Positions 1,448 to 22,921 of a DNA stretch of 64,000 bases are shown here, in pieces. The notes beneath the pieces were generated by a model. It had not been told where the DNA came from and made no database searches. It saw only the letters and a program-made list of their open reading frames with translations. The first letter of the stretch is position 1; each line of letters opens with the position of its first letter. The position numbers and the translations under genes are program-made. Origin of the DNA: Deltaproteobacteria bacterium (GTDB taxonomy: Bacteria > Desulfobacterota > Dissulfuribacteria > Dissulfuribacterales > DYLC01). The stretch spans positions 1-64,000 of the forward strand of contig JAQVIJ010000004.1 of the NCBI GenBank assembly GCA_028695735.1. The letters run 5' to 3'.

Positions 1448-2954
1448 TAATATGGTTGTTCATTATGCTCTGATAGGAATGTGTCTTCTGACGTTGACAG
1501 GATGTGCTGTTGGGCCTGACTTCCAGCGCCCGGCACCCCCTGATGTGATTGGTTATACTCCCACCCCGCTGGCTACAAGTTTGAATTCCTCCCCCACCAC
1601 GCTGGGTGATCCACAAAACATTATTAAGGCAGAACGACTAACAAAACATTGGTGGCGAGCGATGGGTGCCGACAAACTAGACATGCTCATCAGCGAGGCC
1701 CTGGAACGTAATCCAACCCTGATGGCGGCAGAGGCTACTTTGCGTCAGGCTCAGGAACTTTACGCGGCGAGGGCTGGTTCGACGCTTTATCCACAATTAG
1801 AGGGCAACTTGGGTGGCCAGCGCCAACGCTTCAATCCTGGAACATTAGGACAAACCGGAGAAGCACGGGAATTCAGTCTCTACAATGCTGGCGTGGGTGT
1901 TCGCTATACATTTGATCTGGCCGGGGGCAATCGTAGGGCGTTGGAAGCTCTGGCTGCCCGGAGCGATTATCAGCAGTTTCAATTGGAAGGCGCTCGTTTG
2001 ACATTGGTGGCAAATATCGTCACAACGGCCATCACTCAGGCAAGCCTGAAAAGGCAGACTGAAATTATAGAAAACATCTTGAAATCGCAGGAAAACCAAC
2101 TCGAACTAACCCGGGAACGCATTCGTCTTGGTCATGGAGAACCGGACGATGCGTTAGTCCTGCAGACACAGTTGGAGCAAACGCGCGCCAAACTGCCGCC
2201 GTTACGTTATCAACTTCAACAAAACGAACATTTTTTGGCCGTTCTTGTGGGTAAAGCTCCAGGAGAGAGCTTGTTGCCGTCGTTTACCTTGGAGGATTTC
2301 ACCCTGCCTCCGGAGTTGCCGTTGTTAATTCCCTCTGAACTGGTGCGTGCAAGGCCGGATATTCTCGGCGCTGAAGCGTTGCTGCATGCCTCTAATGCAG
2401 AATACGGGGTCGCAATATCGAAACTATATCCCCAACTCAACCTTAGCGCCGATCTTGGATCACAGGCACTGACGACCGGTGCGTTGTTCGGCAGTGGTTC
2501 CGCTGTTTGGAGTCTGGTGGGGCAGCTGACACAACCCCTGTTCAATCCAGGCTTGCCCGCTGAAAAGAGAGCAGCTCTCGCCGCCTTCGATGCGGCTGCG
2601 GCAAACTACCAGTCCGTCGTTCTGGAAGCTCTTCGCAACGTAGCTGATGTATTGCGGGCATTGGAGAATGATTCAAAAAGGCTGGAGGCTCTTTCTGCTG
2701 CTGTTTCCGCTTCAGAGAAGTTTTTAGAGTCAACACAGCGTCGGTATAGGCTTGGAACAGCCAGCTATTACGATCTGCTTATCGCACAACAACAACGGCT
2801 TCAGACCGAACTCGATCTAACAGAAGGCCAGGCCAAACGCCTGGTCAACACTGCCGCTTTTTACCAGGCGATGGGCGGCGGTTTAAATGGCATTACCGGA
2901 AGCGCTGGCGATGTGTCGGAGGCTCAAAGCGCGGAGCGGATCGCCTCGCGATAG
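1437..2954 (+). CDS. Outer-membrane efflux lipoprotein (NodT/OprM/TolC family), altered C-terminus
   Basis: 505 residues. N-terminal signal with lipobox LTGC places it as an outer-membrane lipoprotein; two repeated OEP domains follow with alternating helices (for example AEATLRQAQELYAARA and RYRLGTASYYDLLIAQQQRL) and the strand segment LNLSADLGSQAL. The family forms trimeric channel-tunnels for tripartite export, fitting the ABC genes upstream. The last 25 or so residues run into DNA that, on the other strand, is the end of a phage-like gene. The native stop codon may have been lost at a junction around 2885-2925 and the protein now ends on a stop inside the acquired DNA. The rest is full length. 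Confidence 0.88.
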   Translation: MGNNNMVVHYALIGMCLLTLTGCAVGPDFQRPAPPDVIGYTPTPLATSLNSSPTTLGDPQNIIKAERLTKHWWRAMGADKLDMLISEALERNPTLMAAEATLRQAQELYAARAGSTLYPQLEGNLGGQRQRFNPGTLGQTGEAREFSLYNAGVGVRYTFDLAGGNRRALEALAARSDYQQFQLEGARLTLVANIVTTAITQASLKRQTEIIENILKSQENQLELTRERIRLGHGEPDDALVLQTQLEQTRAKLPPLRYQLQQNEHFLAVLVGKAPGESLLPSFTLEDFTLPPELPLLIPSELVRARPDILGAEALLHASNAEYGVAISKLYPQLNLSADLGSQALTTGALFGSGSAVWSLVGQLTQPLFNPGLPAEKRAALAAFDAAAANYQSVVLEALRNVADVLRALENDSKRLEALSAAVSASEKFLESTQRRYRLGTASYYDLLIAQQQRLQTELDLTEGQAKRLVNTAAFYQAMGGGLNGITGSAGDVSEAQSAERIASR

Positions 2955-3220
2955 TTCAGGAGGATCTGCTCGCGGTACTTCTCCATCACCGGATGCAGAA
3001 AGGGTCTGGCGGGGATGACGATGGTCGCGCCGTTCGGATGTTTGATGGTGGCTCCGTACTCCATGACGGCACCGATGTTCACCATGTCTTCCCCGTCCTT
3101 GTTGACGGTGCCGCGCAGCAGGCCGACAAACGCCTTGTCGGCCATGATCTTCTGGGTGATGGCGTTGACGAGAAAGCCGGTGTCGATGAGCGCCTTGCTG
3201 GAACCTTTGCGCTCGAGGAT
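2924..3220 (-). pseudogene. Phage morphogenesis (HK97 gp10-like) gene fragment
   Basis: The minus strand encodes about 98 residues that read like the C-terminal part of a phage gp10/virion morphogenesis protein: LIDTGFLVNAI, then LLRGT-NKDGEDMVNIGAVMEYGATI and IPARPFLHPVMEKYR, ending at a stop at 2924. The 5' end is missing: the frame meets a stop exactly where the repeat element begins at 3223. No other phage genes are present, so this is a stray fragment captured between mobile sequences rather than a prophage. Family assignment rests on my memory of the motif IVIPARPFLxPVM. Confidence 0.65.
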
Positions 3221-3222
3221 CT

Positions 3223-3774
3223 AAAAAAGGACAGTCACATTCTTGAATAATATTTTTAATTAAATTTTTTATCAAAAATCATTAAAATTACCTCACTGTC
3301 AACCAAAAGTAAGGGCAAAATAAGGTCTTTAGTCTGAAGATTCTTTTTTGTTACATATTTTACCCAGCATATAGATAATTCCAGGGATTTGTTTTGCGGA
3401 TGAGGGGTTCTAACCGACATCGTGCTTGTGGATTTTTCAGTTTTAATACATGGTGATAATTCAATATCTGGGCGATGAGCAGCCGGCATTTGTTCCATGC
3501 CCCACATAACCGCCCTCCTTGGCGGAGAATGTGGGGCCGGCGCCCTTCATGGCGCCTATTCCACAAACACCGGCTGCTCATCGCCCCTCCCCCACAAAAG
3601 AATGTAGGGGCGACCGGCCGGTCGCCCCTACTTCGGCGGCTATCGCCGCCCTGCAATGACGATGAGTCTGTATCGCCCTTCTTGGCAGTTATGCGCCGCA
3701 TGGAACAAATGCTTCACCGCTGTCACTCAGGAGATTTAATTAAAAAAGTTGAGCAGAAATGTGTCTGTCCTTTT
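3223..3774. repeat. MITE-like element, copy A
   Basis: Left end AAAAAAGGACAGTCACATTC, then an AT-rich arm ending TTTTTAATTAAAT. The right end (3733-3774) reads, on the opposite strand, AAAAGGACAGACACATTTCT and TTTTTTAATTAAATC. The two ends are therefore inverted repeats of about 45 bp. The interior has no credible gene but is rich in palindromes: a perfect 28-bp palindrome at 3604-3631 (half-site GTAGGGGCGACCGG), a pair of arms containing CATTTGTTCCATG and its complement, and a CCCCACAT/ATGTGGGG hairpin. It abuts the phage fragment. Copies B and C share both ends and most of the interior. Confidence 0.8.
3604..3631. repeat. Perfect 28-bp palindrome inside copy A
   Basis: GTAGGGGCGACCGG followed by its exact reverse complement. 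The same 28 bases occur at 8138-8165 in copy C, and a version with three mismatches lies at 45637-45664 inside hdrA. Confidence 0.9.
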
Positions 3775-3873
3775 GTTCTGTTCCAACCCCCTTTTTTGCC
3801 CTTGTTTTTGTTTGACAGTGCAGCAAGCCTATGATAATTTTTAGAAAACCTGTAAGGTAGATAATAAATAATG

Positions 3874-4327
<454 letters not shown>

Positions 4328-4406
4328 CTAAGATTATAAAAGATTTCCTATCCTTACTTCGTATGATATTTATGTTAAAAAGAGACCGCTCTTAGGAGGT
4401 TGTAGC

Positions 4407-4577
4407 ATGGAAACAAAGTTAAAAATGATCTATTGGAAAGGCGAGAAATTCTGGGTGGGAAAGCTCCTTGAACATCCAGAAATAATGACACAAGGCGAGA
4501 CACTGGAAGAACTTGAAGATAACATGAAGGATGCCTACGCGCTGATAATAAAAAAGGACAGTCACATTCTTGAATAA
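4407..4577 (+). CDS. Truncated HicB-like antitoxin
   Basis: 56 codons from ATG with a good ribosome site (AGGAGG, 6 bases upstream). The product starts METKLKMIYWKGEKFWVGKL and continues MTQGETLEELEDNMKDAYALI, which fits the HicB partial RNase-H fold (GDTLEEALENIKEAI in typical members). The last eight or so residues (KKDSHILE) are encoded by the left end of repeat copy B, so the C-terminal part, usually with the DNA-binding region, has been cut off. No HicA gene is next to it. It begins just after the attC site and was probably the gene of a second cassette. Confidence 0.6.
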   Translation: METKLKMIYWKGEKFWVGKLLEHPEIMTQGETLEELEDNMKDAYALIIKKDSHILE

Positions 4578-5468
4578 TATTTTTAATTAAATCTTTTTGA
4601 TTAGTTATACCAATTCCTTCAGTTACCCCCAATGAAATCTAACATTATTTATCATCTGCCTACCGACTTTTTATCAAAAATCATAAAATTGCCTCACTGT
4701 CAACCAAAAGTAAGGGCAAAACAGGGCCTTTAGTCTGAAGATTCTTTTTTTTGTTACATATCTTACCCAGCATATAGATAATTCCAGGGCCTTGTTTTGC
4801 GGATGAGGGGTTATAACCGGCATCGTGCTTGTGGATTTTTCAGTTTTAATACATGGTGACAATTCAATATCTGGGCGGGGGCAGCCGGCATTTATTTCAT
4901 GCCCCACATAACCGCCCTTCTTGGCGGAGAATGTGGGGCCGGCGCCCTTCATGGCGCCTATTCCACAAACACCGACTGCCCTCGCCCCTCCCCATCTCCA
5001 CATTCTACCTCAGAAGCCGCTTAAAAAAAGACATAGACCCTTTGGACTTTGGTTAACACCCTTCCTGAAACCCCACACCCAATCATAAACGACGCTTCAA
5101 AGCAGCACATCCCTTTGCACTTTGGTGAACAGCGGGTAAAGGCCAATTCTGCGATTTTTATTGGCAGAAATGCCGGTTCAGCCAGCGATTTTTATTATCA
5201 GAAGGGTAGGTTCATTATTTCAGCAGGTCAATCCGTTATCATTGGGATTGCAGTAGGAATGAATAGAGCATCTGTTATAAACATGGAGTTCCGCAGGGAC
5301 GAGAAGGGGCGGCCGTGGTGGAGTGTTTGTGAAATAGGCGCCATGAAGGGTGCCGGCGGCGCATCCTGCCAGGGATGGCAGTTATGCGCCGCATGGAACA
5401 AATGCTCCACCGCTGCCGCCCCAAGAGATTTAATTAAAAAAGTTGAGCAGAAATGTGTCTGTCCTTTT
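4550..5468. repeat. MITE-like element, copy B (longer)
   Basis: Same left end as copy A (AAAAAAGGACAGTCACATTC at 4550) and same right end (GAGATTTAATTAAAAAAG, then GTGTCTGTCCTTTTG ending about 5468). The interior is longer: about 330 bases at roughly 5005-5330 are absent from copies A and C, and a module matching the right part of the CGCCCTTCATGGCGCC hairpin follows in inverted orientation around 5325-5365. It lacks the 28-bp palindrome. No convincing protein-coding gene is seen. It truncates the HicB-like gene. Confidence 0.72.
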
Positions 5469-7695: not shown

Positions 7696-8309
7696 ATAAT
7701 ATTTTTAATTAAATCTTTTTTGATTAGTTATATCAATTCCTTCAGTTGCTCCCAATGAAATCTAACATTATTTATCATCTGCCTACCGATGCCTTACCGA
7801 CTTTTTATCAAAAATCATAAAATTACCTCACTGTCAATCAAAAGTAAGGGCAAAATAAGGTCTTTAGTCTGAAGATTCTTTTTTTGTTACATATCTTATC
7901 CAGCATATAGATAATTCCAGGGACTTGTTTTGCGGATGAGGGGTTCTAACCGACATCGTACTTGTGGATTTTTCAGTTTTAATACATGGTGATAATTCAA
8001 TGTCTGGGCGATGAGCAGCCGGCATTTGTTTCATGCCCCACATAACCGCCCTTCTTGGCGGAGAATGTGGGGCCGGCGCCCTCGTGGCGCCTATTCCACA
8101 AACACCGGCTGCTCATCGCCCCTCCCCACAAAAGAATGTAGGGGCGACCGGCCGGTCGCCCCTACTTCGGCGGCTATCGCCGCCCTGCAATGACGATGAG
8201 TCTGTATCGCCCTTCTTGGCAGTTATGCGCCGCATGGAACAAATGCTTCACCACTGCCACCCCAAGAGATTTAATTAAAAAAGTTGTTCAGAAATGTGTA
8301 TGTCCTTTT
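7672..8309. repeat. MITE-like element, copy C
   Basis: Left end AAAAAAGGACAGTCACATTC at 7672 and right end GAGATTTAATTAAAAAAG then GTATGTCCTTTTG to about 8309, inverted repeats of one another. The interior is nearly colinear with copy A, including the perfect 28-bp palindrome at 8138-8165. Compared with A it has an extra stretch of about 75 bases near the left end (GATTAGTTATATCAATTCC onward) shared with copy B. No gene is seen inside. Confidence 0.8.
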
Positions 8310-8333: not shown

Positions 8334-8684
8334 CTAAGGCTGTGTGTTTTTCCTCTGCTCCTTCTCTTTAAGGAAATGTTGTAGTTCATTTTTGACAAAT
8401 GCCAGTACATTCATTTCCTTGATGAGATTTTTGATGTACTTGGTGTCAGGAAAGTTGATGGCATCGAAATAACACCAGGTTTTGCATGAAGTACATCCTA
8501 CCATACAATTAAGAGGATTCACTACTACAGCCTTTTCCTTTGCTATATCATAGTCAAAGACTCCACGACGGCAACTGGTGACACACATACCACACCCAGT
8601 GCATTTGTTTGTATCGATAAATGGATGCCACTCTATCTGTTTCCTTGGTATCCCTTTCCATAGCTCTTCTTTTTCAGTCAGCAT
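8334..8684 (-). CDS. 4Fe-4S dicluster ferredoxin-type protein
   Basis: 116 residues, no signal peptide, so cytoplasmic or membrane-associated. Two cluster motifs: CTGCGMCVTSCRRG at about residues 28-41 and a variant CMVGCTSCKTWC at about 60-71 in which the spacing and the missing Pro differ from classical ferredoxins. It starts 24 bases after the octaheme cytochrome stop with a clear GGAGG, so it is in the same transcript and probably passes electrons to or from that membrane cytochrome. Confidence 0.82.
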   Translation of the reverse strand: MLTEKEELWKGIPRKQIEWHPFIDTNKCTGCGMCVTSCRRGVFDYDIAKEKAVVVNPLNCMVGCTSCKTWCYFDAINFPDTKYIKNLIKEMNVLAFVKNELQHFLKEKEQRKNTQP

Positions 8685-8708: not shown

Positions 8709-11171
8709 TTATTTATTCCTGCCCATCTTGCCAAAGAGGAGCGCAAGTGCTGCCCAGCCGCATAGAAATACAGCGCCTAAGTCGTGCAGTGTAAAGGCGA
8801 TCTGTCGAGTGTTTATGGAGTCGCTGAACAGCAATATGGCTGCTGTCAGCGCCATGAAGAGCACGCCGCAAACGGCAGTCCAGTACCAGATACTCCTCGC
8901 AGCCTTTGCCCTCAAAATGCTGTAGATGACCGCTGCCAGAAACACCAGCCCTGCCAATGTATGGAATTTGCCAAGCATATCCACCAGTTGGGAGGTCAGT
9001 ATCTCTTCTCCAATGATGATCAAACCTGGCCCTGCCACGGCTATGAGCAGTATGGCGATCATCAGCCCGTGAGTGGTGGAGAGGCAAATACTCTGCGGCA
9101 GAGTGAGGGTATGGCCCGTTGTCATCAGAAAGACGGCAGCCGCAATCAGTGCGCTTAAAATGACCACCAACAGCGTCTTTCCCAGCCATTCATGGCGTAT
9201 GGCCCCCATCCAGACTCCAAATTCAGAGAGCCCAAGGAGTTGTGCATTGGTGGTATAAAGCGTTTCTGCATTGGGGCCGGTAAAGGGTTTCAGCATCACC
9301 TTTTGATTCCAGAAGTTGGATTTCAGGCTGTGGCAGTCCGTGCAGCCACCTGAGCCCAAGGCGCTGGCCGCTGGCAGGATATCGTGGCTGAGCTTGAAGA
9401 CCGAGGAGTATGGCGTATATTCCCAGGGCTGCGGTTTAAAGGGCAGGGGCCTCCATGTGACTCCATCTGTTGTGTACTCACTGCCTGAAACCAGTATCAC
9501 ATCCTTGTTTTCCAGGTCTTCGCCGGCCTTTTGTAGATAACGGGCCATGGCCTTGAGCAAGGCCTGTATCTCCTCAGGTCTATTCAATTCCGCTGCGCCA
9601 TCCTGATTGTCGTCCTGAATGGAGGCCAGTTCAGGGTAGTTGTTTTTAGGGTCATCCCTGTGCGCCTTCCACACGGCGAACAGGTCCTTCATAAATGGCT
9701 GGCCGATGTGTTGGCCGTCTTTGGTGAGAGTGGCCACCCAGATGCTGTAGATGCGATTCATGGGATAGATGCGGCCTTTATACCAGATGCGCACTGGTTC
9801 ATAGAGAAACAGGGGCTGGTGCTCAGAGGTGGCAAGGCTGGCCTCGCCATAGAGGTTCCATGGCTTCATGTCAGGGCCATAAAAGGTCCAGATGCGTTTA
9901 CCAGGGGCCTCTATGCGAGGGACATCGTTAAACACGGTGCTGTCCTGAATAAGGGCGGCCTTGGCCTGCCTTTGGGGTATGTGGCAGGTCTGACAGGCTA
10001 TTTTTTCCAGGTGTCGCGAGGGCAGGCCATAGTGTTTGGGAATGGGTGCCTTGAGAAGACCTGTCATGTGACAGTCCTCGCAGGTGCGCATGGTGTTGTT
10101 CAGGTCCTTTCTGACCAGGCCTGTTGGGTCGTCACCCTTTCCGATCTGGTGCATCTCCTGGCCATTTATGCGCGCATCCTTGGCCTTTTTGCCCGTCACA
10201 TGGCAGTCCACGCAACGCACTCCAGCCTTCAGATGCACATCGGTCCTTTCGCTGTAGATGGCCCCTTTTTTCTTCCAATCCGGTTCCTTGTGGCAGTTTA
10301 GGCAGACCTCTGATGCAGGCTCTCTCACCATGTGCAAAGAGACCTCTCCAGAGGGCAGAAACAGCTCTTTTCTGTAGGTGAGCACGGGGGTTTCACCCTT
10401 TTTCACCTGGTCCTGCACTGTGGCAAGGCCTGCGCCTGCCGTGGCCGCCCAGCGAAAGTTCTGTGCTGCTATCTGTTTGGCACGCTCTGAGTAGTTATAA
10501 GCAGGCATGTGGCAGAGCAGGCAATCCGCCTCCAAGACGCCGGTGGCCGCCCAGTTGGCCTTGAAATAGTCTCCGTCCAGGCGGTTGTCTCCGTTGGGCT
10601 GAATGTGATTGGACTCATCTGAAGCAAATTGGTCATATCTGTGGCCGTTTCTATCATATTCTGCTGGCCCTCCGCCTGGATGGCAGGCGCCGCAGGCAGT
10701 TACGAATTCAAAGGATGTGAGGTCGATCTCCCTGGGGCTTTTGTTTTCCTTTTTCGCCAACTGGCGATAATTGGGGGCGGCGCTTCAGTAGCGGCCTCCA
10801 TATTGGCCGGGGCTGCGCATCCATGGGTAGATGGCCGCCATTTCTGAAGAGACCCGCTCGTCCTTGCCTTGTTGAAAATGATAGCCGCTGGTGATGCGGT
10901 CATAGTCGTGGCATCTGCCACAGGTCTTTTTGGGGCTGTAGGGCTTGTCTGTATTCATATCCTTTGATGGGTCTATGACCGCCCCGTCTTCTGTCAACAG
11001 ATGAAACGGCGGGCATACAGACATAAAGCTACGCCTGGCCGTTTCCTGAGCAGAGCGTTCCTCCACTCTTGCATGGAGGTCCATGGCAAGGGATGTCTGC
11101 CATGAAGAGATTACAATGAGGGTAATCAGGTGCCAAAGGATCAAATGTGGCAGGGAGGAGCGAGTGGGCAT
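8709..11171 (-). CDS. extKL: ExtKL-like octaheme c-type cytochrome, predicted selenoprotein with membrane domain
   Basis: The frame runs from ATG 11171 (GGAGGG ribosome site) to 8709 with a single in-frame TGA at 10785-10787; reading through it gives 820 residues. Seen: N-terminal signal anchor; eight CxxCH motifs (CGRCH before the TGA; CGACH, CLLCH, CLNCH, CVDCH, CEDCH, CQTCH, CTDCH after it); then about five membrane helices with histidines (THGLMI, KFHTLAGL, TLHDLGAV) that could bind b-haem. The TGA is followed at 17-31 nt by the hairpin UCGCC-AGUU-GGCGA, with G second in the loop. Residues around the TGA read SPGQYGGRY-U-SAAPNY. Family knowledge: ExtKL of Geobacter-type selenite/tellurite or metal-reduction loci is described as a multihaem (seleno)protein; I assign it from memory and context. 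Alternatives: nonsense mutation or sequencing error. Confidence 0.68.
10754..10767 (-). promoter_or_regulatory. Candidate bacterial SECIS hairpin for ExtKL
   Basis: Perfect 5-bp stem (UCGCC/GGCGA) with tetraloop AGUU. The loop begins 23 nt after the in-frame UGA and has G within its first two positions, both within published bacterial SECIS limits as I know them. Confidence 0.5.
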
Positions 11172-11588
11172 ATTGGGGGTTCCCTCCAATCAAAGGTGAG
11201 CCTTGCAAAATCGTCTTTCCTCGCGTCTTGTTCCCGAACGAAGATTCTAATTTTTCAAGGCTTCCGAAGCTATTCGATTTTGTAAAGAATAAAACAACAT
11301 TGTTTGATATGTCAAGCTTTTTGTTTCGCATGTAGTCAGCCCATAATTTGTCTTGAGTTTAGATAATCTTGCCAATTGTCAATATATTCTCGCCGAATGG
11401 CAAGATTAACTTGCCTATAGTCCATTGGAGTTGGACAGTTGGCGTTGTGAGCATGGAAAATATGCGTAGAATGGCCTCAAAAGCCCATATTAAATTAAAA
11501 AGGAGGTGAGACAGAAAGATATAAAATTGATTTTATGCGTTCGGCAGTTACTGAAGTATGAATCTCAATTTCATTTAGGAGGGCAGTC
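11172..11588. promoter_or_regulatory. Divergent extKL / extI intergenic region
   Basis: 417 bases without a gene. It holds (i) a repeat of the second intergenic family at 11196-11266, close to the extKL start; (ii) an 11-bp perfect inverted repeat, TAATCTTGCCA at 11364-11374 and its complement at 11398-11408, spaced by 23 bases, a candidate operator or hairpin; (iii) a TTGATATGTCAAG sequence at about 11308-11320 that is FNR-like but too short between half-sites; (iv) a GGAGGTGAG purine tract at 11502 with no frame following it; (v) the extI ribosome site AGGAGGG. No clear -10/-35 pair is chosen. Confidence 0.5.
11196..11266. repeat. Intergenic palindromic repeat, family 2, copy 1
   Basis: Left arm GAGCCTTGCAAAATCG, right arm TCTAATTTTTCAAGGCTTCC; the ends are inverted repeats with the family consensus GGAAGCCTTGAAAAATT. 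Confidence 0.6.
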
Positions 11589-14203: not shown

Positions 14204-14366
14204 ATTTTTCCCTCCCTGTGGTCCCATCGCCCTTGCAAATCTGATGCTGTTGTCATAAATAAGATGAGTTTCCATAAGTTATAATTGGTTGCGCCCTTTA
14301 ATACAAGGCCCATGTTTTTATTTTGAAACACCTTTCGTCAGCCATCTTTTTATTTTAGGAAGCATT

Positions 14367-15320
14367 ATGGCCAGGAACTATAGAGGTTATGAGGGGATTC
14401 GGCTGTGTCTGATGGCCCTTTTGTGTTGTTTATTGGCGGTCGCCTGCAATGACCTGTCGAGAAAGGAAGGAGGCAATGCAAACGGCCCTCAAGAGGCGGC
14501 CGATGTCATTAGATTGGACAAGCTTTCACCTATCCCTTCCAAAAAACAGATGGATTCCGGGCCGCCCCTTCGAGTGGCCGTAGCGGCGATACTGTCCCCT
14601 GAAGGGACAGTGGAGTCCTATTCTCCGCTTTTGAGATATCTCGAAGCGGTCACAGGCAGACCCGTAAAACTCATTCAAAAAAAGACCTATGGCGAGGTAA
14701 ACGAGATGGTAGTTTCAAGTCAAGTGGACCTGGCCTTCATCTGTACCGGTGCCTATTTCAAGGAGACAGACAGACAGAAAATGAAGCTCCTGGTGACCCC
14801 TCAAATAAATGGCAAGGATACCTATCGGGCAGTTGTCATCGTACCTGCCTCTTCTTCAGTGCAGGAGTTTTCTCAGCTGAGGGATAAGGTGTTCGCCTTT
14901 ACGGATCCCATGTCAAATACGGGTTACCTGTATCCCATGACCATCTTGGATGGGCTGGGTGAGCGGGCGGATGTGTTTTTCAAACGCACCTTTTTTACCT
15001 ATAGTCATGACAGGGCCATTGAGGCGGTGGCGAATGGTCTGGCTGATGGTGCATCAGTGGATGAGATAGTTTATACACATGCCATTCAAAAAAGGCCTGA
15101 GTTGGTCAAGCGATTGAAGGTGATTCATACATCTCAGGAATTCGGTATGCCGCCTGTGGTGGTGCCGGCGGAGACTGACCCCAGTGTCTCTAATGCCTTG
15201 CAGGATATATTTTTGCATATGCATGAGAATCAAGATGGCAAAAAGGTCTTGACTGCCATTGGAGTGGAGCGTTTTTTGGAGCCCAATCCCTTGAACTATA
15301 AGTTGGCGCCCAATGGATAG
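14367..15320 (+). CDS. PhnD-like periplasmic binding lipoprotein (probable sensor partner)
   Basis: 317 residues from ATG 14367 (AGGAAG ribosome site). Lipobox LAVAC puts the acylated Cys at residue 27. The mature part is a type-2 periplasmic binding protein of the PhnD/phosphonate-binding class: LRVAVAAILSPEGTVESYSP, VNEMVVSSQVDLAFICTGAY, FTDPMSNTGYLYPM. No ABC permease or ATPase follows; a histidine kinase gene starts 6 bases after the stop. In TtrS and related thiosulfate/tetrathionate sensors a PhnD-like domain is fused to the kinase. Here it appears as a separate lipoprotein, so it probably binds a sulfur oxyanion and presents it to the kinase. Ligand is inferred. Confidence 0.8.
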   Translation: MARNYRGYEGIRLCLMALLCCLLAVACNDLSRKEGGNANGPQEAADVIRLDKLSPIPSKKQMDSGPPLRVAVAAILSPEGTVESYSPLLRYLEAVTGRPVKLIQKKTYGEVNEMVVSSQVDLAFICTGAYFKETDRQKMKLLVTPQINGKDTYRAVVIVPASSSVQEFSQLRDKVFAFTDPMSNTGYLYPMTILDGLGERADVFFKRTFFTYSHDRAIEAVANGLADGASVDEIVYTHAIQKRPELVKRLKVIHTSQEFGMPPVVVPAETDPSVSNALQDIFLHMHENQDGKKVLTAIGVERFLEPNPLNYKLAPNG

Positions 15321-15326
15321 GCCTCT

Positions 15327-16784
15327 ATGACCGAGTGGTGGAACAACCTAAAGGCGTGGCTCAGTATTTTTTGGGCCCATGCCGATGCTGTACCCATCCG
15401 CATAAAGATCATGGGGATGGTGGCTGGGACTGCCTTTTTGGTGGGGGGATGGTCCATCTTTCAGGTGAATGAGGTGATGAAACAGGAGGCTGAGCGTCAG
15501 TGCCATGATATGAGTATCGCCTTGGCCAGTGAATTGGCTGTAAGGGCACAGGAATATGTCTTGTTAAATGATCTCTTGGGGTTGACACAGCTTCTGAAAA
15601 ACGCGGTCAAGAACCTGCCGGATCTCCGTTATGCCTTTGTGCTGGATAACCATGGAGAGGTGATTGCCCATTCCTTTGAAGGCGGTTTCCCGTTGGATCT
15701 GCTGAAGGTGGAGCATGGCATATCGCCGGCTGTAGAGTCCCTTGCCATTAAAACCAATGAGGGACAGGTGTGGGATGCCGTTATCCCCATTTTAAAGGGT
15801 GAGGGAGGGCTGTTACGGGCAGGCGTCTCGGAAAGGCGCTCAGAGACTGCCAGATTATCCCTTTTGAACGCCTTGATGCTGACCACTATAGTGGTTGCAG
15901 GTCTGGGCATCCTCTTTTCAGGACTTTTGACCTGGCTTTTAACCAGGCCGTTAAAGGAGTTGGTGAACTTTACACGCATGTTAAAGACAAGGGATTTTTC
16001 AGCGAGGGTGACACGAATAACCGACGATGAGATAGGCCAATTGGCGGCTGCCTTCAATGAGATGGCTGCACAGTTAGAGATGGCTGAAAGGGTTAGGCAA
16101 GATGCTGATGCCATGCGCAGTGGTTTTTTACAAAAGGTGATTCTGGCCCAGGAAGAGGAGCGAAAGCGCATTGCCTGTGAGCTTCACGATCAAACCGCTC
16201 AGTCTCTGGCCTTTTTGATGTTGGAGTTGCGTATTCTGGAACAGGCCCAGGACCAAGCCGCCATAAATGCCAGCATCGGACGGCTTCGTCAGGCCCTTAC
16301 ACAGGAATTGAATTCCATTCGCAACATGGCTATGGAGTTAAGGCCATTGGTACTGGATGATATGGGTGTCAGTGCGGCCATCGAAAGCTATGTAAGGCGT
16401 TTTGAAGAGGGCTATGGCATGAAAATAGACCTCTATCTCGATGGGTTTGATGGCATTCATCTGCCTTTTTATGTGGAGATAGCCCTTTATCGTATTGTGC
16501 AGGAGGCCATGTTGAATGTGGTGCGGCATGCAGCCGCATCCAATGTTACAGTGATAATTGAGCGGATAGAAAATGAGATACGCGGGGTGGTGGAGGACAA
16601 TGGCAGGGGTTTTGATGTGAGCTCTCTGGCTGCTACTCACAGATTCGGTATCTATGGTATGAAAGAGAGGGCACAATTGTTGGGCGGCAGTCTGTCGGTG
16701 GAGTCAGAGCCTGGGCAGGGTACCATGGTGAGTTTTGTCATTCCCATTCGACAGGTTTTTGCAGAAGATGCAAGACTGCCTTGA
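15327..16784 (+). CDS. Membrane histidine kinase, HisKA_3/NarX type (TtrS-like signalling half)
   Basis: 485 residues. TM1 about 26-45, a periplasmic domain of about 135 residues, TM2 about 181-204, HAMP about 205-255, dimerisation/phosphoacceptor helix with ELHDQ (His about 287), and an ATPase domain with the N box (EAMLNVVRHAA) and G box (VEDNGRGFD). The HisKA_3 class pairs with LuxR-type regulators, and one follows 32 bases downstream. Cotranscribed with the PhnD-like lipoprotein, which probably supplies ligand sensing. The kinase retains its own periplasmic domain, so it could also sense directly. Confidence 0.9.
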   Translation: MTEWWNNLKAWLSIFWAHADAVPIRIKIMGMVAGTAFLVGGWSIFQVNEVMKQEAERQCHDMSIALASELAVRAQEYVLLNDLLGLTQLLKNAVKNLPDLRYAFVLDNHGEVIAHSFEGGFPLDLLKVEHGISPAVESLAIKTNEGQVWDAVIPILKGEGGLLRAGVSERRSETARLSLLNALMLTTIVVAGLGILFSGLLTWLLTRPLKELVNFTRMLKTRDFSARVTRITDDEIGQLAAAFNEMAAQLEMAERVRQDADAMRSGFLQKVILAQEEERKRIACELHDQTAQSLAFLMLELRILEQAQDQAAINASIGRLRQALTQELNSIRNMAMELRPLVLDDMGVSAAIESYVRRFEEGYGMKIDLYLDGFDGIHLPFYVEIALYRIVQEAMLNVVRHAAASNVTVIIERIENEIRGVVEDNGRGFDVSSLAATHRFGIYGMKERAQLLGGSLSVESEPGQGTMVSFVIPIRQVFAEDARLP

Positions 16785-16816
16785 AAAACATGAGTGAGCC
16801 TGAAGGGGTCAATTAA

Positions 16817-17470
16817 ATGCCTATCATCAAAATTGCCTTGGTGGATGACCATGCCCTGCTTTTGGCAGGTCTGAAAATGCTCATCTCTGCTCAAGAGGAT
16901 ATGCGAGTAGTGGCAGAGGCGCAGACCGCTCAAGAGGCCTTGAAGGTCATTCCAGCAACAACACCTGATTGTATTTTATTGGACATCTCCCTTCCTGATA
17001 TGAGTGGCATGGAGCTCTTGCCCCTTTTGAAGGAAAGGCTGCCTTCAAGCCATATAATCCTGCTTACCATGCATGAGGACCAGCAATATCTCAAAAAAGG
17101 CATGGAGTTAGGGGCCAGTGGTTTTCTTTTGAAACGGGCTATGGATCAAGACCTTCTCTATGCCATTAGAACGGTTTATGGCGGCGGTATCTACATACAG
17201 CCCGATATGCTCAAATATATGGTCGGCAATAAGTCAGCCTCCGTTAATCCACAGGAAAAGGCCCTGGCCCTGTGGAATACCCTAAGTCCAAGGGAACAGG
17301 ATGTAATGATTCAATTGGCCAAGGGGTTTAGTAGCCGTGAGATAGCAGATGCATGTAATTTAAGTGAAAAGACCGTGGCCACCTATCGCTATCGCGGCTT
17401 TTTGAAGTTGGGCATCTCAAGGCGTTCAGAGCTGGTGGCCTTTGTGATGAAGATCGGCGTGCTGTCTTGA
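16817..17470 (+). CDS. LuxR/NarL-family response regulator (TtrR-like)
   Basis: 217 residues: receiver domain 1-120 with acidic pair DD at 10-11, phosphoacceptor Asp56 (CILLDISLPDMSG), and Lys near 107 (FLLKRAMD); C-terminal LuxR helix-turn-helix about 150-212 (LSPREQDVMIQLAKGFSSREIADACNLSEKTV is the characteristic stretch, given here in part). It is next to the cognate kinase and just upstream of the molybdoenzyme operon, whose promoter region contains a short inverted repeat (GTAAGA/TCTTAC at 17485-17501) that could be its target. Confidence 0.92.
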   Translation: MPIIKIALVDDHALLLAGLKMLISAQEDMRVVAEAQTAQEALKVIPATTPDCILLDISLPDMSGMELLPLLKERLPSSHIILLTMHEDQQYLKKGMELGASGFLLKRAMDQDLLYAIRTVYGGGIYIQPDMLKYMVGNKSASVNPQEKALALWNTLSPREQDVMIQLAKGFSSREIADACNLSEKTVATYRYRGFLKLGISRRSELVAFVMKIGVLS

Positions 17471-17716
17471 TCCTTTTCACCGTGTAAGAGAAATTCTTAC
17501 ATCCTTCAGGATTTTTTCTATCATTTCCTACGAAATTGTCTAATTTTCTCCGCTGGTCATTTTTCCTTCAAATGTTAAAAACAGACTGTATTCGTTGAGC
17601 CAGACAATGGATACAGGGATATGTGGTGTTTTTTATTATTGTTGCCTCCGAGAGGAGGGATGCGGCGGTCTCAATTTAGGACCGCCCTGTTTTGAATTCT
17701 TGAAAGGAGAAGAGAG
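17471..17716 (+). promoter_or_regulatory. Leader region of the ttr-like operon
   Basis: 246 bases without a gene. Contains the inverted repeat GTAAGA-n5-TCTTAC at 17485-17501 and, close to the start codon, two hairpins: CCTCC/GGAGG around 17645-17658 and GGCGGTC/GACCGCC at 17664-17686. The second lies about 30 bases before ttrB and could act as an attenuator or protect the mRNA. Ribosome site AAAGGAGAAG at 17701-17710. No confident sigma-70 boxes. Confidence 0.45.
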
Positions 17717-18532
17717 ATGGTCAATTCAGCATTTGCTGCAGAGACACAACAGGCGCCGGCACAGGCGGCGCCGGTCAGTGCCCCCAAACAGGCTCCGGCC
17801 CCACAGGATGTCCTGGTCAGGATGCACAAGGAATTGCAGGCCGCCTTAAAGAGAAGCCAGGCGGAGAGGCGTTGGGTGATGGTGATTGATCTGCGTAGGT
17901 GTATAGGCTGTCATGCCTGCACAGTGGCATGTATCTCGGAAAATAAATTGCCGCCAGGAGTGGTTTATAGGCCTGTCACCATCAAAGAGGTAGGGGTCTA
18001 TCCAAAGGTAAGCATGGAATTTCTGCCCAGGCCATGCATGCAGTGTGATGAGCCTCCCTGTACAGAGGTCTGCCCCGTACATGCCACTTATAAAAACAGC
18101 GACGGCATCGTAGTGGTGGATTATGACCAGTGTATCGGTTGCCGAGCCTGTATTGCGGCATGTCCGTATGGTGCCCGTACCTTTGATTTCGGCCATAACT
18201 ACCTGGAAGGTACTCCAAAGGGTATGGAGTTTCTGTTGAGTCAGGAGAAGGCGAATGCCTATGAAAACAAGGTTAACATAGAATACGGTAAAAGGCGCGA
18301 ACGAAATGGCCATGCCTCTCCTGTTGGCAATGTGCGTAAGTGCCATTTCTGCCTGCATCGTTTGGAGGCTGGAATCCTGCCTGCCTGCACTACAACTTGT
18401 ATCGGCAGGGCTACGTATTTTGGCGATGCCAATGACAAAGGGTCCTTGGTCCATGAGCTCATTGCTCGCGCCGATGTAGTACAGCTCAAAAAAGAATTGG
18501 GGACGCGGCCTCGCGTCTATTACATCTATTAG
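17717..18532 (+). CDS. ttrB: Iron-sulfur subunit of molybdoenzyme (TtrB/PsrB-like, four 4Fe-4S clusters)
   Basis: 271 residues with four cysteine clusters: [35 protein letters not shown] and CHFCLHR with CTTTC, the DmsB/PsrB/TtrB pattern. It would carry electrons from the membrane quinol oxidase (next gene) to the catalytic subunit. The N-terminus is odd: it begins [12 protein letters not shown] and an Ala/Pro/Gln-rich linker, like a protein just after signal cleavage, but no hydrophobic segment precedes it and an in-frame stop lies 24 bases upstream. It is probably exported by hitch-hiking on the Tat signal of the catalytic subunit. Confidence 0.82.
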
Positions 18533-18541
18533 GAGGCCTTT

Positions 18542-19666
18542 ATGAACAAAAGTATCGCATATACAGTTGGTGTAATAGCCTTGCTCATCGGTCTGTATGG
18601 TTTTTTTGACCGTCTGGTCTATGGGGAGGCCCATGCGGCCTATGGCTCTTTTGTGGTCTGGGGGCTGTGGGTGGCTGCCTATTTCTTTTTGGGCGGCATT
18701 GCAGTGGGTTGTTTCCTCTGGGGCAGCCTGGACCTGCTCTTTGGTTTAGAGACCTTTAAGGGCATGGGCAAGACAGCCCTTTGGGCTGCACTGGTGACCT
18801 TGGTGGCAGGTCTTATGGCAATCGGTTTTGATTTGGGCCATATGGAGCGCATCTGGAAGGCCTACATACAGGTCAATTTCCATTCCGGCGTGGCAGAAGA
18901 TGTATGGGCATATACCCTCTTTGGCATATTCACTCTTATAGCCCTGTATCAGAGTTGCAGTGGTTCTAAACCTGCAAAGGTGATTCTGATTCTGGGACTC
19001 ATCGTAGCCCTGTTTGTGGCAGGTGCACCTGGTAAGCTCATGGGCGTAAATGCAGGCCGTATGTACTGGCATGCCGGGCTGTTACCTGTGCAGTTTTTGA
19101 TCTTTGCCTTGACCACAGGCGCTGCCATGTTGATGGTCATCTTTGGTCTGTTCGGTGCATCAGACAAGGCTGCCAGGTCCTTTCCTGTGCTCACCAAGGC
19201 TACGGCGGGGTTGCTTTTTGTCAATCTCTATATGCTCTGGGCCTATTACAGTGAGGGGCTTACAGGCAATATGCCTTCTGTTGCAGAGCCCATCCGTATG
19301 GTTATGCAGGAGCATGCAGTGCTCTTTTGGCTTGTGCAGGTGGCCGTCGGTCTTTTGATTCCATTGGTGGTCTTGTCCCAGTCCAGGACCGCAGCCAATC
19401 CGGCACTGGTGGGCGTTATGGGCCTGTGTGTGCTCCTGGGGAATTTGGTGAGCCGTTACTTCATTTTGGTCCCTGCTCAACAGATAGACCTGTTGGAAGG
19501 TCTGTCATCCGCCTTCCATGGCAGGGGATATACCCTGGCATATACCCCAAGCATGACAGAATGGGCGGTCTTTTTAGGGCTTATCGGTATCGTGATATTA
19601 GGGCTTTTGATAGGTGCGGACTACCTGCATCCCTTGTGCCAGTGTAAATCTCAAAAGGAGGCATAA
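18542..19666 (+). CDS. ttrC: NrfD/PsrC/TtrC-type membrane quinol oxidoreductase subunit
   Basis: 374 residues, almost entirely hydrophobic, with about nine or ten membrane helices (for example GLWVAAYFFLGGIAVGCFLW, AVLFWLVQVAVGLLIPLVVL). NrfD-type proteins anchor the iron-sulfur subunit and exchange electrons with menaquinol. The gene starts 9 bases after ttrB with an AGGAGG site and is followed 6 bases later by the catalytic subunit, so the three are one transcription unit in the order B-C-A, the order of Salmonella ttrBCA. Confidence 0.85.
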   Translation: MNKSIAYTVGVIALLIGLYGFFDRLVYGEAHAAYGSFVVWGLWVAAYFFLGGIAVGCFLWGSLDLLFGLETFKGMGKTALWAALVTLVAGLMAIGFDLGHMERIWKAYIQVNFHSGVAEDVWAYTLFGIFTLIALYQSCSGSKPAKVILILGLIVALFVAGAPGKLMGVNAGRMYWHAGLLPVQFLIFALTTGAAMLMVIFGLFGASDKAARSFPVLTKATAGLLFVNLYMLWAYYSEGLTGNMPSVAEPIRMVMQEHAVLFWLVQVAVGLLIPLVVLSQSRTAANPALVGVMGLCVLLGNLVSRYFILVPAQQIDLLEGLSSAFHGRGYTLAYTPSMTEWAVFLGLIGIVILGLLIGADYLHPLCQCKSQKEA

Positions 19667-19672
19667 CAACAT

Positions 19673-22600
19673 ATGATTAAGTTTAATTCCATGACTCGAA
19701 GGGATTTTCTCAAGGTCTCTGCTGTGGGTACAGGTGCAGCGTTTTTGAGTGACATGCCTCATGTGTGTCACGCCATAGAAAAGGCATTGGCAGCCGGTGA
19801 TTCCAGCCTGTTTGAGGCTGATCCCACAAAGCAGATACATACAGTTTGTCTTCAGTGCAATACGGGCTGCGCCATTCGTGTAAAGATATTGGACGGTATT
19901 GCAGCCAAGATAGAAGGTAATCCCTACAGCCCCTGGACCCTTTGGCCCCATCCTGCTTACAAGACACCCATCAAGGAGATGGCCACTCTGGAAGGCGGTA
20001 TCTGCCCCAAGGGACAGGCTGGCATTCAGACACTCTATGACCCATATCGCATTGTCAGTGTGCTGAAGAGAAAGCCCGGCACCAAACGCGGGGAGGGCAA
20101 GTGGGTTACCATTTCATTTGATAAGGCCATCGATGAGATAGTAAACGGCGGTGATCTCTTTGGCGAAGGTCGTGTGGAGGGGTTGAAGTCAGTTCGTGCC
20201 CTTACAGACACGGAAGTGGCCGCCAAGATGGCAGAGGCCATCAAGAAATACTGGGATGAAAAGGACAAGGACAAGAAAAAGGAGCTGCTTGCCAAGTTCA
20301 AAGAGGATTTCAAGGACCACCTCCACACCCTCATTGACCCTGAGCATCCGGACCTGGGGCCGAAAAATAACCAGTTTATGTTTGTTTGGGGCCGTATGAA
20401 GGGGGGCAGAGAGGACTTGGTGCATCGTTTTGTGCAGGAGGCCTTTGGTTCTATCAACATGAACGGCCATACCACGGTCTGTCAGGGCTCTCTTTATTTT
20501 ACAGGCAAGTCCATGTCATCCAAATGGAATCCTGAAAAAGGCGAGTTTGACAGCGGTGACAAGTTCTATTGGCAGGCGGATACGGGCAACAGCAAGTTTG
20601 TGATCTATGTGGGCAATAACCTCTATGATGCCAATTATGGTCCGCCGCAGCGGGTGCCCAAGGCCACTCAGGCTACAGTTGACGGCCGAAAATTTGTGGT
20701 GATAGACCCACGTTGTTCCAAGTTGGCAGCCAAGGCCTGGAAGTGGGTTCCCATAAAACCAGGCATGGATGCGGCCTTTGCCATGGGCATGATGCGTTGG
20801 ATCTTTGAAAACGAGCGATATAACAAGGGCTACCTGGCCATTGCCAACCAGGCTGCAGCCAAGGCAGCGGAGGAACCCAATTATTCCAATGCTGCCTGGT
20901 TGGTGAAATTGGATGACAAGGGCAATCCAACCAAATTTTTGCGAGCAAGCGAGATCGGTTTGGTGACTCCGGTAAATGAACAGGGGCCTGACGGCAAGCC
21001 TGTGACTCGCTATGTGGACAAGGCAGGTCATAAATATCCAGGGGATGTCCCTGTGATTCTGGTGGATGGTAAGCCGGTTGCCTTTGACCCAGTGGATGAA
21101 AAGGCAGCCCCTGCCGTAGGCGAACTCCTTGTGGATACCACCATAGCTGACAAGCCTGTCAAGTCCTCACTACAGCTTTTGAAGGATGAGGCATTTAAGT
21201 ACTCCATTGAGGAGTGGGCGCAGATCTCAGGGGTCTCTGCCGAGGACATAGTTGTGGTGGCCAAGGAGTTCACCTCCCATGGCAGAAAGGCGGTGGCAGA
21301 CATACACAGAGGTCCGTCCCAGCACACCAATGGATTTTATAATAACAATGCCTTCAATGTCTTGAACCTGCTCATCGGCAACTACGACTATGCCGGCGGC
21401 TATATAAAGGTCAGCACCTATGACAGAAATGGCGGGAAAAAGGGGCAGCCATATCCTGTGGCAAAGATGTTTGGCGAGCACCATTTCAAGGCATTTGGCG
21501 TGGATATGCTGCGCACAAAGGCGGGTTATGAAAAGACCAGCCTTTTTGACGGCAAATACCCCACCAAACGGCCGTGGTATCCGCTGGCAAGCGATGTATA
21601 TCAAGAGGACTGGGCATCCATTGGAGACGCATATCCCTATCCCATCAAGGTATTGATGACTTACATGTGCGGAGCTGTGTACAGCCTGCCTGCATCCCAG
21701 ACGGTCATAGACATATTGTCTGATACCAAGAAGGTGCCTCTGCACATAGCATCCGATATCCTCATAGGTGAGACCTCCAGTTATGCAGATTATATCTTCC
21801 CTGACCTTTCTTATCTGGAGCGTTGGGAGTTCCATGGCTCGCATCCGTCTGTGCCCTGGCAGGTGGAGAATGTGCGCCAGCCTGCTGTAAGTCTCCCCGG
21901 CTGGCCCACGGTCAAGGTCTTTGGGGAGGAGATCCCCATGTGTTTTGAGGCGGTCTATCTGGCCATTGCTGAGCGTCTGAAGCTCCCTGGTTTTGGACCA
22001 AATGGTTTTGCAGAAGGCTTGCCCTTTACAAGACCTGAGCACTTCTACCTGAAACAGGTGGCGGATATCGCATTTGGTCATAAGGAAGACGGCTCTGATT
22101 CTGTTCCTGAGGCCAGTGATGAAGAGTTGCGAATCTTTTTGGAGGCCAGAAAACACCTGCCCAAGAGCGTGTTTGACCCTGCAAAGTGGAAAGAGGCGCT
22201 TAAAAACGATGAAAGTATGTGGCGCAAGGCGGTCTATGTGCTAAATCGTGGCGGTCGTTATGAGGACTTTGCCAAGGCATACAAGGGCGACAAGGTGGCC
22301 CATCCCTACGGCCGTCTCATCAATCTGTTCCAGGAGAAGACCGCCAAGTCCATCAACACCATGACAGGGAAACACATGATCGGTCTGCCCACCTTTATTC
22401 CGCCAGGCAGGGATTACCTGGATCAGGAGATCAAGGATGAGGGATATCCATTCAATCTCATCACCTTTAAGACCATGACCATGACCAAGTGCCGAACCAT
22501 TACCAATTACTGGCTGCTTTCCATATTGCCTGAGGGCTATGTGCTCATAAACAGCGCAGATGCAGCCAAATTGGGTATCCGTCATGGCGATAAGGTCAGG

Positions 22601-22921
22601 CTTGCCTCTGCCAGCAATCCTGAGGGTGTGTTGGATGTGAAAGGCGGAAGAAAGATCCCCATTGAAGGGAAGGCATATGTAAGCGAGGGTATTCGGCCTG
22701 GTGTCGTGGCCTTTCCTCTCGGTTTTGGCCATTGGGCCAGCGGTGCAGGAGACGTGGATGTGGATGGAAGGCTGGTCAAGGCCGATGCCCGACGGACAAC
22801 CCCATTACATGGGAATGGTGTCATGCGGGTGGATCCGGTCACCAAAAACGTGGGCCTTTCAGATTTAGTGGGCGGTTCATCGGTGTTTTATGACACCAAG
22901 GTCAAGGTCATAAAGGTCTAA
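19673..22921 (+). CDS. ttrA: Periplasmic molybdopterin oxidoreductase, tetrathionate/polysulfide reductase-like catalytic subunit
   Basis: 1082 residues. Tat signal TRRDFLK at 8-14; N-terminal 4Fe-4S site C59, C62, C66, C111 (CLQCNTGC and GGICPKGQAG); candidate Mo ligand Cys270 in NGHTTVCQGS; a C-terminal dinucleotide-binding domain from about residue 930 (VLINSADAAKLGIRHGDKVR). The size (over 1000 residues) and a lysine-rich insert near 190-215 favour TtrA/ArrA-like enzymes over the shorter PsrA/PhsA. Adjacent split TtrS-like sensor and B-C-A order support tetrathionate or thiosulfate as substrate; arsenate, selenate or polysulfide cannot be excluded from sequence reading alone. Confidence 0.75.
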   Translation: MIKFNSMTRRDFLKVSAVGTGAAFLSDMPHVCHAIEKALAAGDSSLFEADPTKQIHTVCLQCNTGCAIRVKILDGIAAKIEGNPYSPWTLWPHPAYKTPIKEMATLEGGICPKGQAGIQTLYDPYRIVSVLKRKPGTKRGEGKWVTISFDKAIDEIVNGGDLFGEGRVEGLKSVRALTDTEVAAKMAEAIKKYWDEKDKDKKKELLAKFKEDFKDHLHTLIDPEHPDLGPKNNQFMFVWGRMKGGREDLVHRFVQEAFGSINMNGHTTVCQGSLYFTGKSMSSKWNPEKGEFDSGDKFYWQADTGNSKFVIYVGNNLYDANYGPPQRVPKATQATVDGRKFVVIDPRCSKLAAKAWKWVPIKPGMDAAFAMGMMRWIFENERYNKGYLAIANQAAAKAAEEPNYSNAAWLVKLDDKGNPTKFLRASEIGLVTPVNEQGPDGKPVTRYVDKAGHKYPGDVPVILVDGKPVAFDPVDEKAAPAVGELLVDTTIADKPVKSSLQLLKDEAFKYSIEEWAQISGVSAEDIVVVAKEFTSHGRKAVADIHRGPSQHTNGFYNNNAFNVLNLLIGNYDYAGGYIKVSTYDRNGGKKGQPYPVAKMFGEHHFKAFGVDMLRTKAGYEKTSLFDGKYPTKRPWYPLASDVYQEDWASIGDAYPYPIKVLMTYMCGAVYSLPASQTVIDILSDTKKVPLHIASDILIGETSSYADYIFPDLSYLERWEFHGSHPSVPWQVENVRQPAVSLPGWPTVKVFGEEIPMCFEAVYLAIAERLKLPGFGPNGFAEGLPFTRPEHFYLKQVADIAFGHKEDGSDSVPEASDEELRIFLEARKHLPKSVFDPAKWKEALKNDESMWRKAVYVLNRGGRYEDFAKAYKGDKVAHPYGRLINLFQEKTAKSINTMTGKHMIGLPTFIPPGRDYLDQEIKDEGYPFNLITFKTMTMTKCRTITNYWLLSILPEGYVLINSADAAKLGIRHGDKVRLASASNPEGVLDVKGGRKIPIEGKAYVSEGIRPGVVAFPLGFGHWASGAGDVDVDGRLVKADARRTTPLHGNGVMRVDPVTKNVGLSDLVGGSSVFYDTKVKVIKV

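What the first reader, a model, noticed from the sequence alone, without database searches (positions are those of the whole stretch)
8709..11171. Octaheme ExtKL-like cytochrome read through an in-frame TGA: second probable selenoprotein
Two open frames (one haem; seven haems plus membrane helices) are in the same frame, separated only by TGA 10785-10787. Twenty-two nt later a perfect hairpin with AGUU loop starts its loop. The loop spacing (23 nt) is nearly that of HdrCB (24 nt). Two unrelated genes with the same defect and the same structure support selenocysteine rather than errors. A Sec next to c-haems in an electron conduit suggests direct chemistry with selenite, tellurite or sulfur species.
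Basis: partly seen in the sequence, partly recalled or inferred. Interest (0 to 1): 0.83.

Follow-up and report, generated by a model that had tools for sequence, protein, structure and literature searches.

The report
Selenium-containing eight-haem membrane cytochrome

Summary
Minus-strand frame 11171-8709 encodes one exported, membrane-anchored octahaem c-type cytochrome, interrupted only by TGA 10785-10787, with a SECIS-like hairpin (loop AGUU) 22 nt downstream. Selenocysteine is strongly supported: the genome has selA, selB, selD and tRNA-Sec(UCA); the codon is TGA in 26 homologous sites and Cys in others, never TAA or TAG; all 26 TGA sites have the hairpin, while 10 of 10 Cys sites outside one genus lack it.

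"ExtKL-like" is wrong. The true ExtKL (five haems, then Sec) is another gene of this genome, and its profile does not match. Our protein is closest to octahaem tetrathionate reductase (OTR): haems 1-7 align in order, the Lys that ligates OTR's catalytic haem 2 is invariant, and Sec lies between haems 1 and 2, as does OTR Cys64. True OTR proteins of this phylum, one in this genome, carry Sec at Cys64. The divergent neighbour is the ExtI porin; homologues elsewhere sit beside ExtKL or arsenic genes.

Best reading: a quinol-linked oxyanion reductase with Sec at its active site. Selenoprotein status is near certain, the OTR-like active site probable, the substrate unknown.

The parts
8709..11171 (-). 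coding sequence of the 820-residue octahaem selenocytochrome, stop codon included
   Evidence: one frame, read through TGA; full-length homologues at 57-62% identity in the same order
11183..11187 (-). ribosome-binding site GGAGG
   Evidence: sequence
11082..11171 (-). export signal, residues 1-30
   Evidence: hydrophobic N-terminus; helix 6-27 in the model
10908..10922 (-). haem 1 site CGRCH, residues 84-88
10785..10787 (-). Sec codon UGA, residue 129
   Evidence: TGA or Cys codon in homologues
10754..10767 (-). SECIS-like hairpin UCGCC-AGUU-GGCGA
   Evidence: present in 26 of 26 TGA sites, absent from 10 of 10 Cys sites outside one genus; shuffles
10680..10694 (-). haem 2 site CGACH, residues 160-164; counterpart of the catalytic haem of OTR
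   Evidence: PMC11024163
10509..10523 (-). haem 3 site CLLCH, residues 217-221
10290..10304 (-). haem 4 site CLNCH, residues 290-294
10263..10280 (-). DWKKKG, residues 298-303; Lys301 aligns with the Lys ligand (Lys153 of 1SP3) of OTR haem 2
   Evidence: Lys301 and Gly303 in 35 of 35, Asp298 in 27 of 35
10200..10214 (-). haem 5 site CVDCH, residues 320-324
10068..10082 (-). haem 6 site CEDCH, residues 364-368
9981..9995 (-). haem 7 site CQTCH, residues 393-397
9330..9344 (-). haem 8 site CTDCH, residues 610-614
8733..9224 (-). C-terminal membrane domain, residues about 650-813
   Evidence: long helices in the model; b561-type domain at this place in relatives L020, L027, L048, no clear family match in the window copy
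8334..8684 (-). downstream 4Fe-4S ferredoxin, 116 residues
11589..12974 (+). divergent neighbour: ExtI porin
   Evidence: NF040900, 318.8 bits, cut-off 150; conserved near the homologue in G013

Best explanation
The gene encodes a selenoprotein: UGA codon 129 is decoded as Sec by SelB and tRNA-Sec(UCA) under direction of the hairpin at 10767-10754 (comparative evidence; about 0.96). The exported product is a periplasmic octahaem domain of an OTR-like kind fused to a C-terminal membrane anchor (about 0.75). Inferred mechanism (about 0.5): electrons enter from the quinol pool at the membrane domain, run through the haem chain to haem 2, which is ligated by Lys301 instead of His, and reduce a sulfur, selenium, tellurium or arsenic oxyanion. 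Sec129, in the loop between haems 1 and 2, acts there as nucleophile or redox-active ligand and holds the substrate as a selenium adduct, much as the haem-ligating Cys of TsdA does with thiosulfate. The substrate is not known, and the direction could be oxidative.
For: selA, selB, selD (with its own in-frame TGA) and tRNA-Sec(UCA) in this genome. Sec or Cys at the site in all close homologues, never TAA or TAG. Hairpin in 26 of 26 TGA sites and 0 of 10 Cys sites outside one genus. Best library matches are TIGR04314 and TIGR04315; profile comparison with genuine OTR 99.3%, E 8e-21, haems 1-7 in order and Lys301 on the OTR Lys ligand. Genuine OTRs of this phylum carry Sec at Cys64 of 1SP3 with their own hairpin. 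Neighbours handle oxyanions: ExtI, ExtKL, ACR3, ArsR, ArsC, ArsG. TsdA precedent for Cys catalysis at a haem: PMC5146829.
Against: The TIGR04315 score is far below its cut-off (45 of 375 bits). ExtKL against OTR also gives 96.6% in the same profile test, so haem motifs inflate such scores. The aligner does not place Sec129 and Cys64 in one column. No PDB fold match. One clade has Ser at the site. The b-type haem or quinol site is not recognisable in the window copy. The core hairpin, -6.9 kcal/mol, is just short of the published -7.5 limit.
Confidence: 0.65

Rival explanations
1. It is a divergent ExtKL, the Geobacter selenite/tellurite selenocytochrome.
For: ExtI porin adjoins; in G062 the homologue is directly upstream of ExtKL; ExtKL is itself a proposed selenocytochrome (PMC5877670).
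Against: NF040886 does not match at E = 10; ExtKL has five haems and Sec after the last; true ExtKL is a separate gene of this genome; profile probability 13.7%.
Confidence: 0.02
2. It is a selenoprotein, but an electron conduit: Sec is a thiol-like redox or structural residue and not the catalytic group.
For: The ExtI porin adjoins; the related MmcA is a conduit (PMC11024163); a clade with Ser at the site exists.
Against: The Lys of the catalytic haem and haem 2 are kept, whereas MmcA lacks both (PMC11024163); genuine OTR has Sec or Cys in the same inter-haem stretch.
Confidence: 0.25
3. UGA is decoded as Cys, not Sec, by the second tRNA (selC*-type) and the second selB of this genome.
For: Such a pair exists at C2:677348-678567; in some Desulfobacterales selC* tRNA-Cys has anticodon UCA (PMC7609411).
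Against: Here its anticodon is GCA, which reads UGU/UGC, not UGA; G008, G018 and G028 show only the UCA tRNA-Sec.
Confidence: 0.02
4. Two separate genes, a pseudogene or a sequencing error.
For: A stop codon does interrupt the frame.
Against: TGA recurs at the same codon in many independent genomes with the same hairpin; Cys relatives are unbroken; the downstream part would lack a signal peptide.
Confidence: 0.01

Closest known systems
Octahaem tetrathionate reductase, OTR (TIGR04315; Shewanella oneidensis, 1SP3)
   Same: Eight haems; haems 1-7 align in order; Lys ligand of haem 2; Cys or Sec between haems 1 and 2; Sec members in this phylum.
   Different: Below the family cut-off; longer loops; extra insert before haem 8; C-terminal membrane domain; Sec not aligned residue for residue.
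ExtKL (NF040886; Geobacter gsu2937-2936)
   Same: Selenocytochrome c associated with ExtI.
   Different: Five haems, Sec after the last haem, no detectable profile match; present separately in this genome.
The 1321-residue Sec multihaem family of the same genomes (L059:7301-11266 and others)
   Same: N-terminal haem 1 to haem 3 region homologous (profile E 1e-54) with Sec in the same column and the same hairpin loop.
   Different: Much longer, no TIGR04315-like compactness, other neighbours; not named in any library searched.
MmcA of Methanosarcina (TIGR04314)
   Same: Best NCBIfam hit by score (48.7 bits); OTR-related cytochrome.
   Different: Seven haems, lacks the catalytic haem and its Lys (PMC11024163); cut-off 250 not met.
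TsdA thiosulfate dehydrogenase/tetrathionate reductase
   Same: Mechanistic analogy only: Cys at the active haem forms a covalent thiosulfonate (PMC5146829).
   Different: Dihaem; homology not claimed; Cys, not Sec.

Membership tests
bacterial selenoprotein | in-frame UGA aligned with Sec or Cys of homologues | tested here: met
[quoted passage not shown]
   loop AGUU, 5 bp, 22 nt; core energy -6.9, slightly short of the limit; 54-nt fold -8.5
bacterial selenoprotein | selA, selB, selD and tRNA-Sec in the genome | tested here: met
bacterial selenoprotein | selenium in the product | not testable with these tools
   needs 75Se or mass spectrometry
OTR (TIGR04315) | score over the curated cut-off | tested here: not met
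   45.4 of 375 bits
OTR (TIGR04315) | eight CXXCH haem sites in the same order | tested here: met
   haem 8 not covered by the alignment
OTR (TIGR04315) | Lys ligand of catalytic haem 2 | tested here: met
   Lys301, 35 of 35, aligned with Lys153 of 1SP3; ligation itself not testable
OTR (TIGR04315) | Cys64 equivalent | tested here: inconclusive
   Sec129 lies in the same inter-haem 1-2 stretch but not in the same column
OTR (TIGR04315) | fold of 1SP3 | tested here: inconclusive
   moderate model, no Foldseek match
OTR (TIGR04315) | reduction of tetrathionate, nitrite or hydroxylamine | not testable with these tools
   needs enzyme assays
ExtKL (NF040886) | match to the family model | tested here: not met
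   no match at E = 10
ExtKL (NF040886) | five haems followed by Sec | tested here: not met
ExtKL (NF040886) | association with ExtI | tested here: met
   shared by neighbourhood only

The most novel reading that the evidence does not exclude
Sec129 directly ligates the iron of the catalytic c-haem opposite Lys301, giving a natural selenolate-ligated haem, by analogy with the Cys-ligated active haem of TsdA. To my knowledge selenolate-ligated haem is known only from engineered proteins.
Probability: 0.15. Interest if true: 0.9.

Novelty: new variant of a known kind. Interest (0 to 1): 0.62.

Why it matters
Sec beside a catalytic c-haem joins two redox chemistries rarely seen together. If the OTR-like reading is right, three related families in one 2.2-Mb genome (this one, OTR itself and the 1321-residue family) have Sec between haems 1 and 2. 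[quoted passage not shown] natural Sec, Cys and Ser variants make the role of that residue, and the real substrate, directly testable. The family was found in 65 of 395 sampled genomes of its phylum yet no Pfam or NCBIfam model over its cut-off describes it as a whole, so routine annotation may split such genes at the UGA.

Tried and rejected
ExtKL membership: rejected by model, layout and profile control. Error, pseudogene or two genes: rejected by recurrence. UGA read as Cys by the second tRNA: rejected by its GCA anticodon. UGU recoded as Sec in the SeepSRB2-type genus: two well-covered genomes have only tRNA-Sec(UCA), so a vestigial SECIS is likelier. Dead ends: PDB sequence searches with our protein or its profile; AF2 with 18 rows poor, with 35 rows moderate but low around Sec; Foldseek against PDB and viral proteins gave no real match; Rfam gave no SECIS; no convincing target for the second tRNA/selB pair in the neighbouring molybdoenzyme.

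Full report
OBSERVATION. The minus-strand frame from ATG 11171 to TAA 8709 is open apart from TGA 10787-10785. It has eight CXXCH motifs, one before and seven after the TGA, an export signal and a hydrophobic C-terminal domain. A hairpin UCGCC-AGUU-GGCGA follows with 22 nt between UGA and loop.

SELENOCYSTEINE. The genome (2.22 Mb, 97% complete) has selB (365 bits), selA (592 bits), selD (366 bits, itself with one in-frame TGA) and tRNA-Sec with anticodon UCA. The protein was found in 65 of 395 sampled genomes of the phylum at E <= 1e-30, the more distant hits being only partial, and in MAGs labelled Spirochaetota and Draconibacterium. At the homologous codon close members have TGA or a Cys codon; one distant clade has Ser. 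No TAA or TAG was seen at the site. On a maximum-likelihood tree the window lies in a well supported clade of mostly Sec members.

SECIS. Among distinct homologous sites (our family plus the related 1321-residue family) 26 of 26 TGA sites have a hairpin with loop AG[UG]U starting 22 or 16 nt after the UGA; 10 of 10 Cys sites outside one genus have none, even where the peptide YRQL is the same. Four TGA members have only 4 bp. The stem changes on both sides between members (UCGCC/GGCGA, CCGCC/GGCGG, UUUCCGC/GCGGAAA). Synonymous-codon shuffles give P = 0.026 for the window and 0.004 to 0.11 for its Sec relatives: single values are modest, the co-occurrence of Sec and hairpin is the strong evidence. 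The core hairpin (-6.9 kcal/mol) is slightly weaker than the -7.5 of the published bSECIS model (PMC13188914).

A RELIC. One genus of the same order (L017-L019, L024, L044, L045, L049; one record is labelled SeepSRB2) has TGT at the site but keeps a 7-bp version of the hairpin. The tree nests these inside a Sec clade. Two of these genomes show only tRNA-Sec(UCA) and still carry a Sec ExtKL. The simplest reading is a recent Sec-to-Cys exchange with a vestigial SECIS.

NOT EXTKL. Geobacter ExtKL (gsu2937-2936) was already proposed as a selenocytochrome (PMC5877670; PMC6148476). Its NCBIfam model NF040886 does not match our protein at E = 10. The same genome has a true ExtKL at C2:606201-607487 (573 bits, one TGA), with five haems followed by Sec in PDGUPTP. 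Profile comparison of the two families gives 13.7%.

WHAT IT RESEMBLES. The best library hits are the methanogen cytochrome TIGR04314 (48.7 bits) and the OTR family TIGR04315 (45.4 bits, cut-off 375). Profile-profile comparison with 14 genuine OTRs gives 99.3% and E 8e-21. As a caution, ExtKL against OTR gives 96.6% and E 6e-10 in the same test, so haem motifs inflate these numbers. In the forced alignment haems 1 to 7 pair in order and Lys301 meets the Lys ligand of haem 2 of 1SP3; that haem 2 is catalytic and Lys-ligated is stated in PMC11024163. Lys301 is present in 35 of 35 sequences. Sec129 and OTR Cys64 both lie between haems 1 and 2, but the aligner does not put them in one column, so their equivalence is inferred.

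OTR ITSELF CARRIES SEC. Ten proteins matching TIGR04315 in this phylum, nine of them over its cut-off and one of these in this genome (C8:270674-272020, 597 bits), have an in-frame TGA in NNF-U-xxxxSNWCRCTSCH. It aligns with Cys64 of 1SP3 (counted from the alignment). These have a strong hairpin CUGGUGC-AGGU-GCACCAG, absent in Cys members. The 2026 review already lists TIGR04315 as a GenBank-annotated Sec family (PMC13188914), so that part is not new. I did not see our family in the passages of that review that I read, and no library model describes it as a whole.

MECHANISM. Shown by sequence: gene architecture, Sec/Cys alternation, hairpin, machinery, neighbourhood. Inferred: quinol to membrane domain to haems to haem 2, with Sec129 as nucleophile or ligand. 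The membrane part is a b561-type domain in relatives L020, L027 and L048 but not recognisable as such in the window copy. The mechanistic precedent is TsdA, whose haem-ligating Cys forms a thiosulfonate with substrate (PMC5146829). That Cys64 of OTR lies at the catalytic haem is my recollection of the 2004 structure paper and was not checked here.

NEIGHBOURHOOD. The divergent gene is the ExtI porin (318.8 bits, cut-off 150), named for selenite/tellurite reduction; a ferredoxin follows downstream; a TtrA-like molybdoenzyme with TtrB/DsrO-like, NrfD-like and sensor genes lies at 14289-22921. ExtI, the 127-residue gene, a Crp/Fnr regulator and TtrA/TtrB-like genes also lie near the homologue in G013. 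Elsewhere the neighbours are ExtKL with ACR3, ArsR and an ArsE-type thioredoxin (G062), ACR3 and ArsR (G018), or ArsG, an ArsC-like and a rhodanese-like protein (G027). This points to oxyanion chemistry without fixing the substrate; no statistical test of the association was made.

STRUCTURE. AF2 with 18 rows was poor, with 35 rows moderate (pLDDT 74, pTM 0.76) and low around Sec. Foldseek found no PDB relative, so fold membership is undecided.

VERDICT. A selenoprotein with high confidence; a new Sec family that works like, and is probably a distant relative of, OTR; not ExtKL; substrate unknown.

Noticed in passing
L086:1348-2955 (own genome C8:270674-272020); also L077, L080, L081, L084, L085, L087, L088, L091, L095: Genuine OTR-family proteins with an in-frame TGA at Cys64 of 1SP3 and a strong hairpin with loop AGGU.
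   Followed up: yes
L059:7301-11266 (own genome C7:149301-153265): A second Sec multihaem family, 1321 residues, sharing the haem 1 to haem 3 region and Sec column with our protein, beside a beta-barrel protein, a multihaem cytochrome and a sensor/regulator pair.
   Followed up: partly
L017, L018, L019, L024, L044, L045, L049: Homologues with TGT at the Sec codon that keep a 7-bp SECIS-like hairpin: probably a recent Sec-to-Cys exchange.
   Followed up: partly
L062 (own genome C2:677348-678567): A tRNA-Sec-shaped tRNA with anticodon GCA directly upstream of a second selB; fits the published selC*/selB* tRNA-Cys system (PMC7609411). Also a GCA tRNA in G062.
   Followed up: partly
L120, L121, L117: Arsenic genes (ACR3, ArsR, ArsC-like, ArsG, ArsE-type thioredoxin) beside homologues of the octahaem gene.
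   Followed up: partly
window 14289-22921: PhnD-like binding protein, NarX-like kinase, response regulator, TtrB/DsrO-like, NrfD-like and TtrA-like molybdoenzyme: a tetrathionate-reductase-like system near the octahaem gene.
   Followed up: partly
   Followed up: no
window about 2883-5003 and 8033-8278: Repeated short ORF-like stretches (for example LIKNIIQECDCPFL and LLRRLSPPCNDDESVSPFLAVMRRMEQ) suggest an intergenic repeat family.
   Followed up: no
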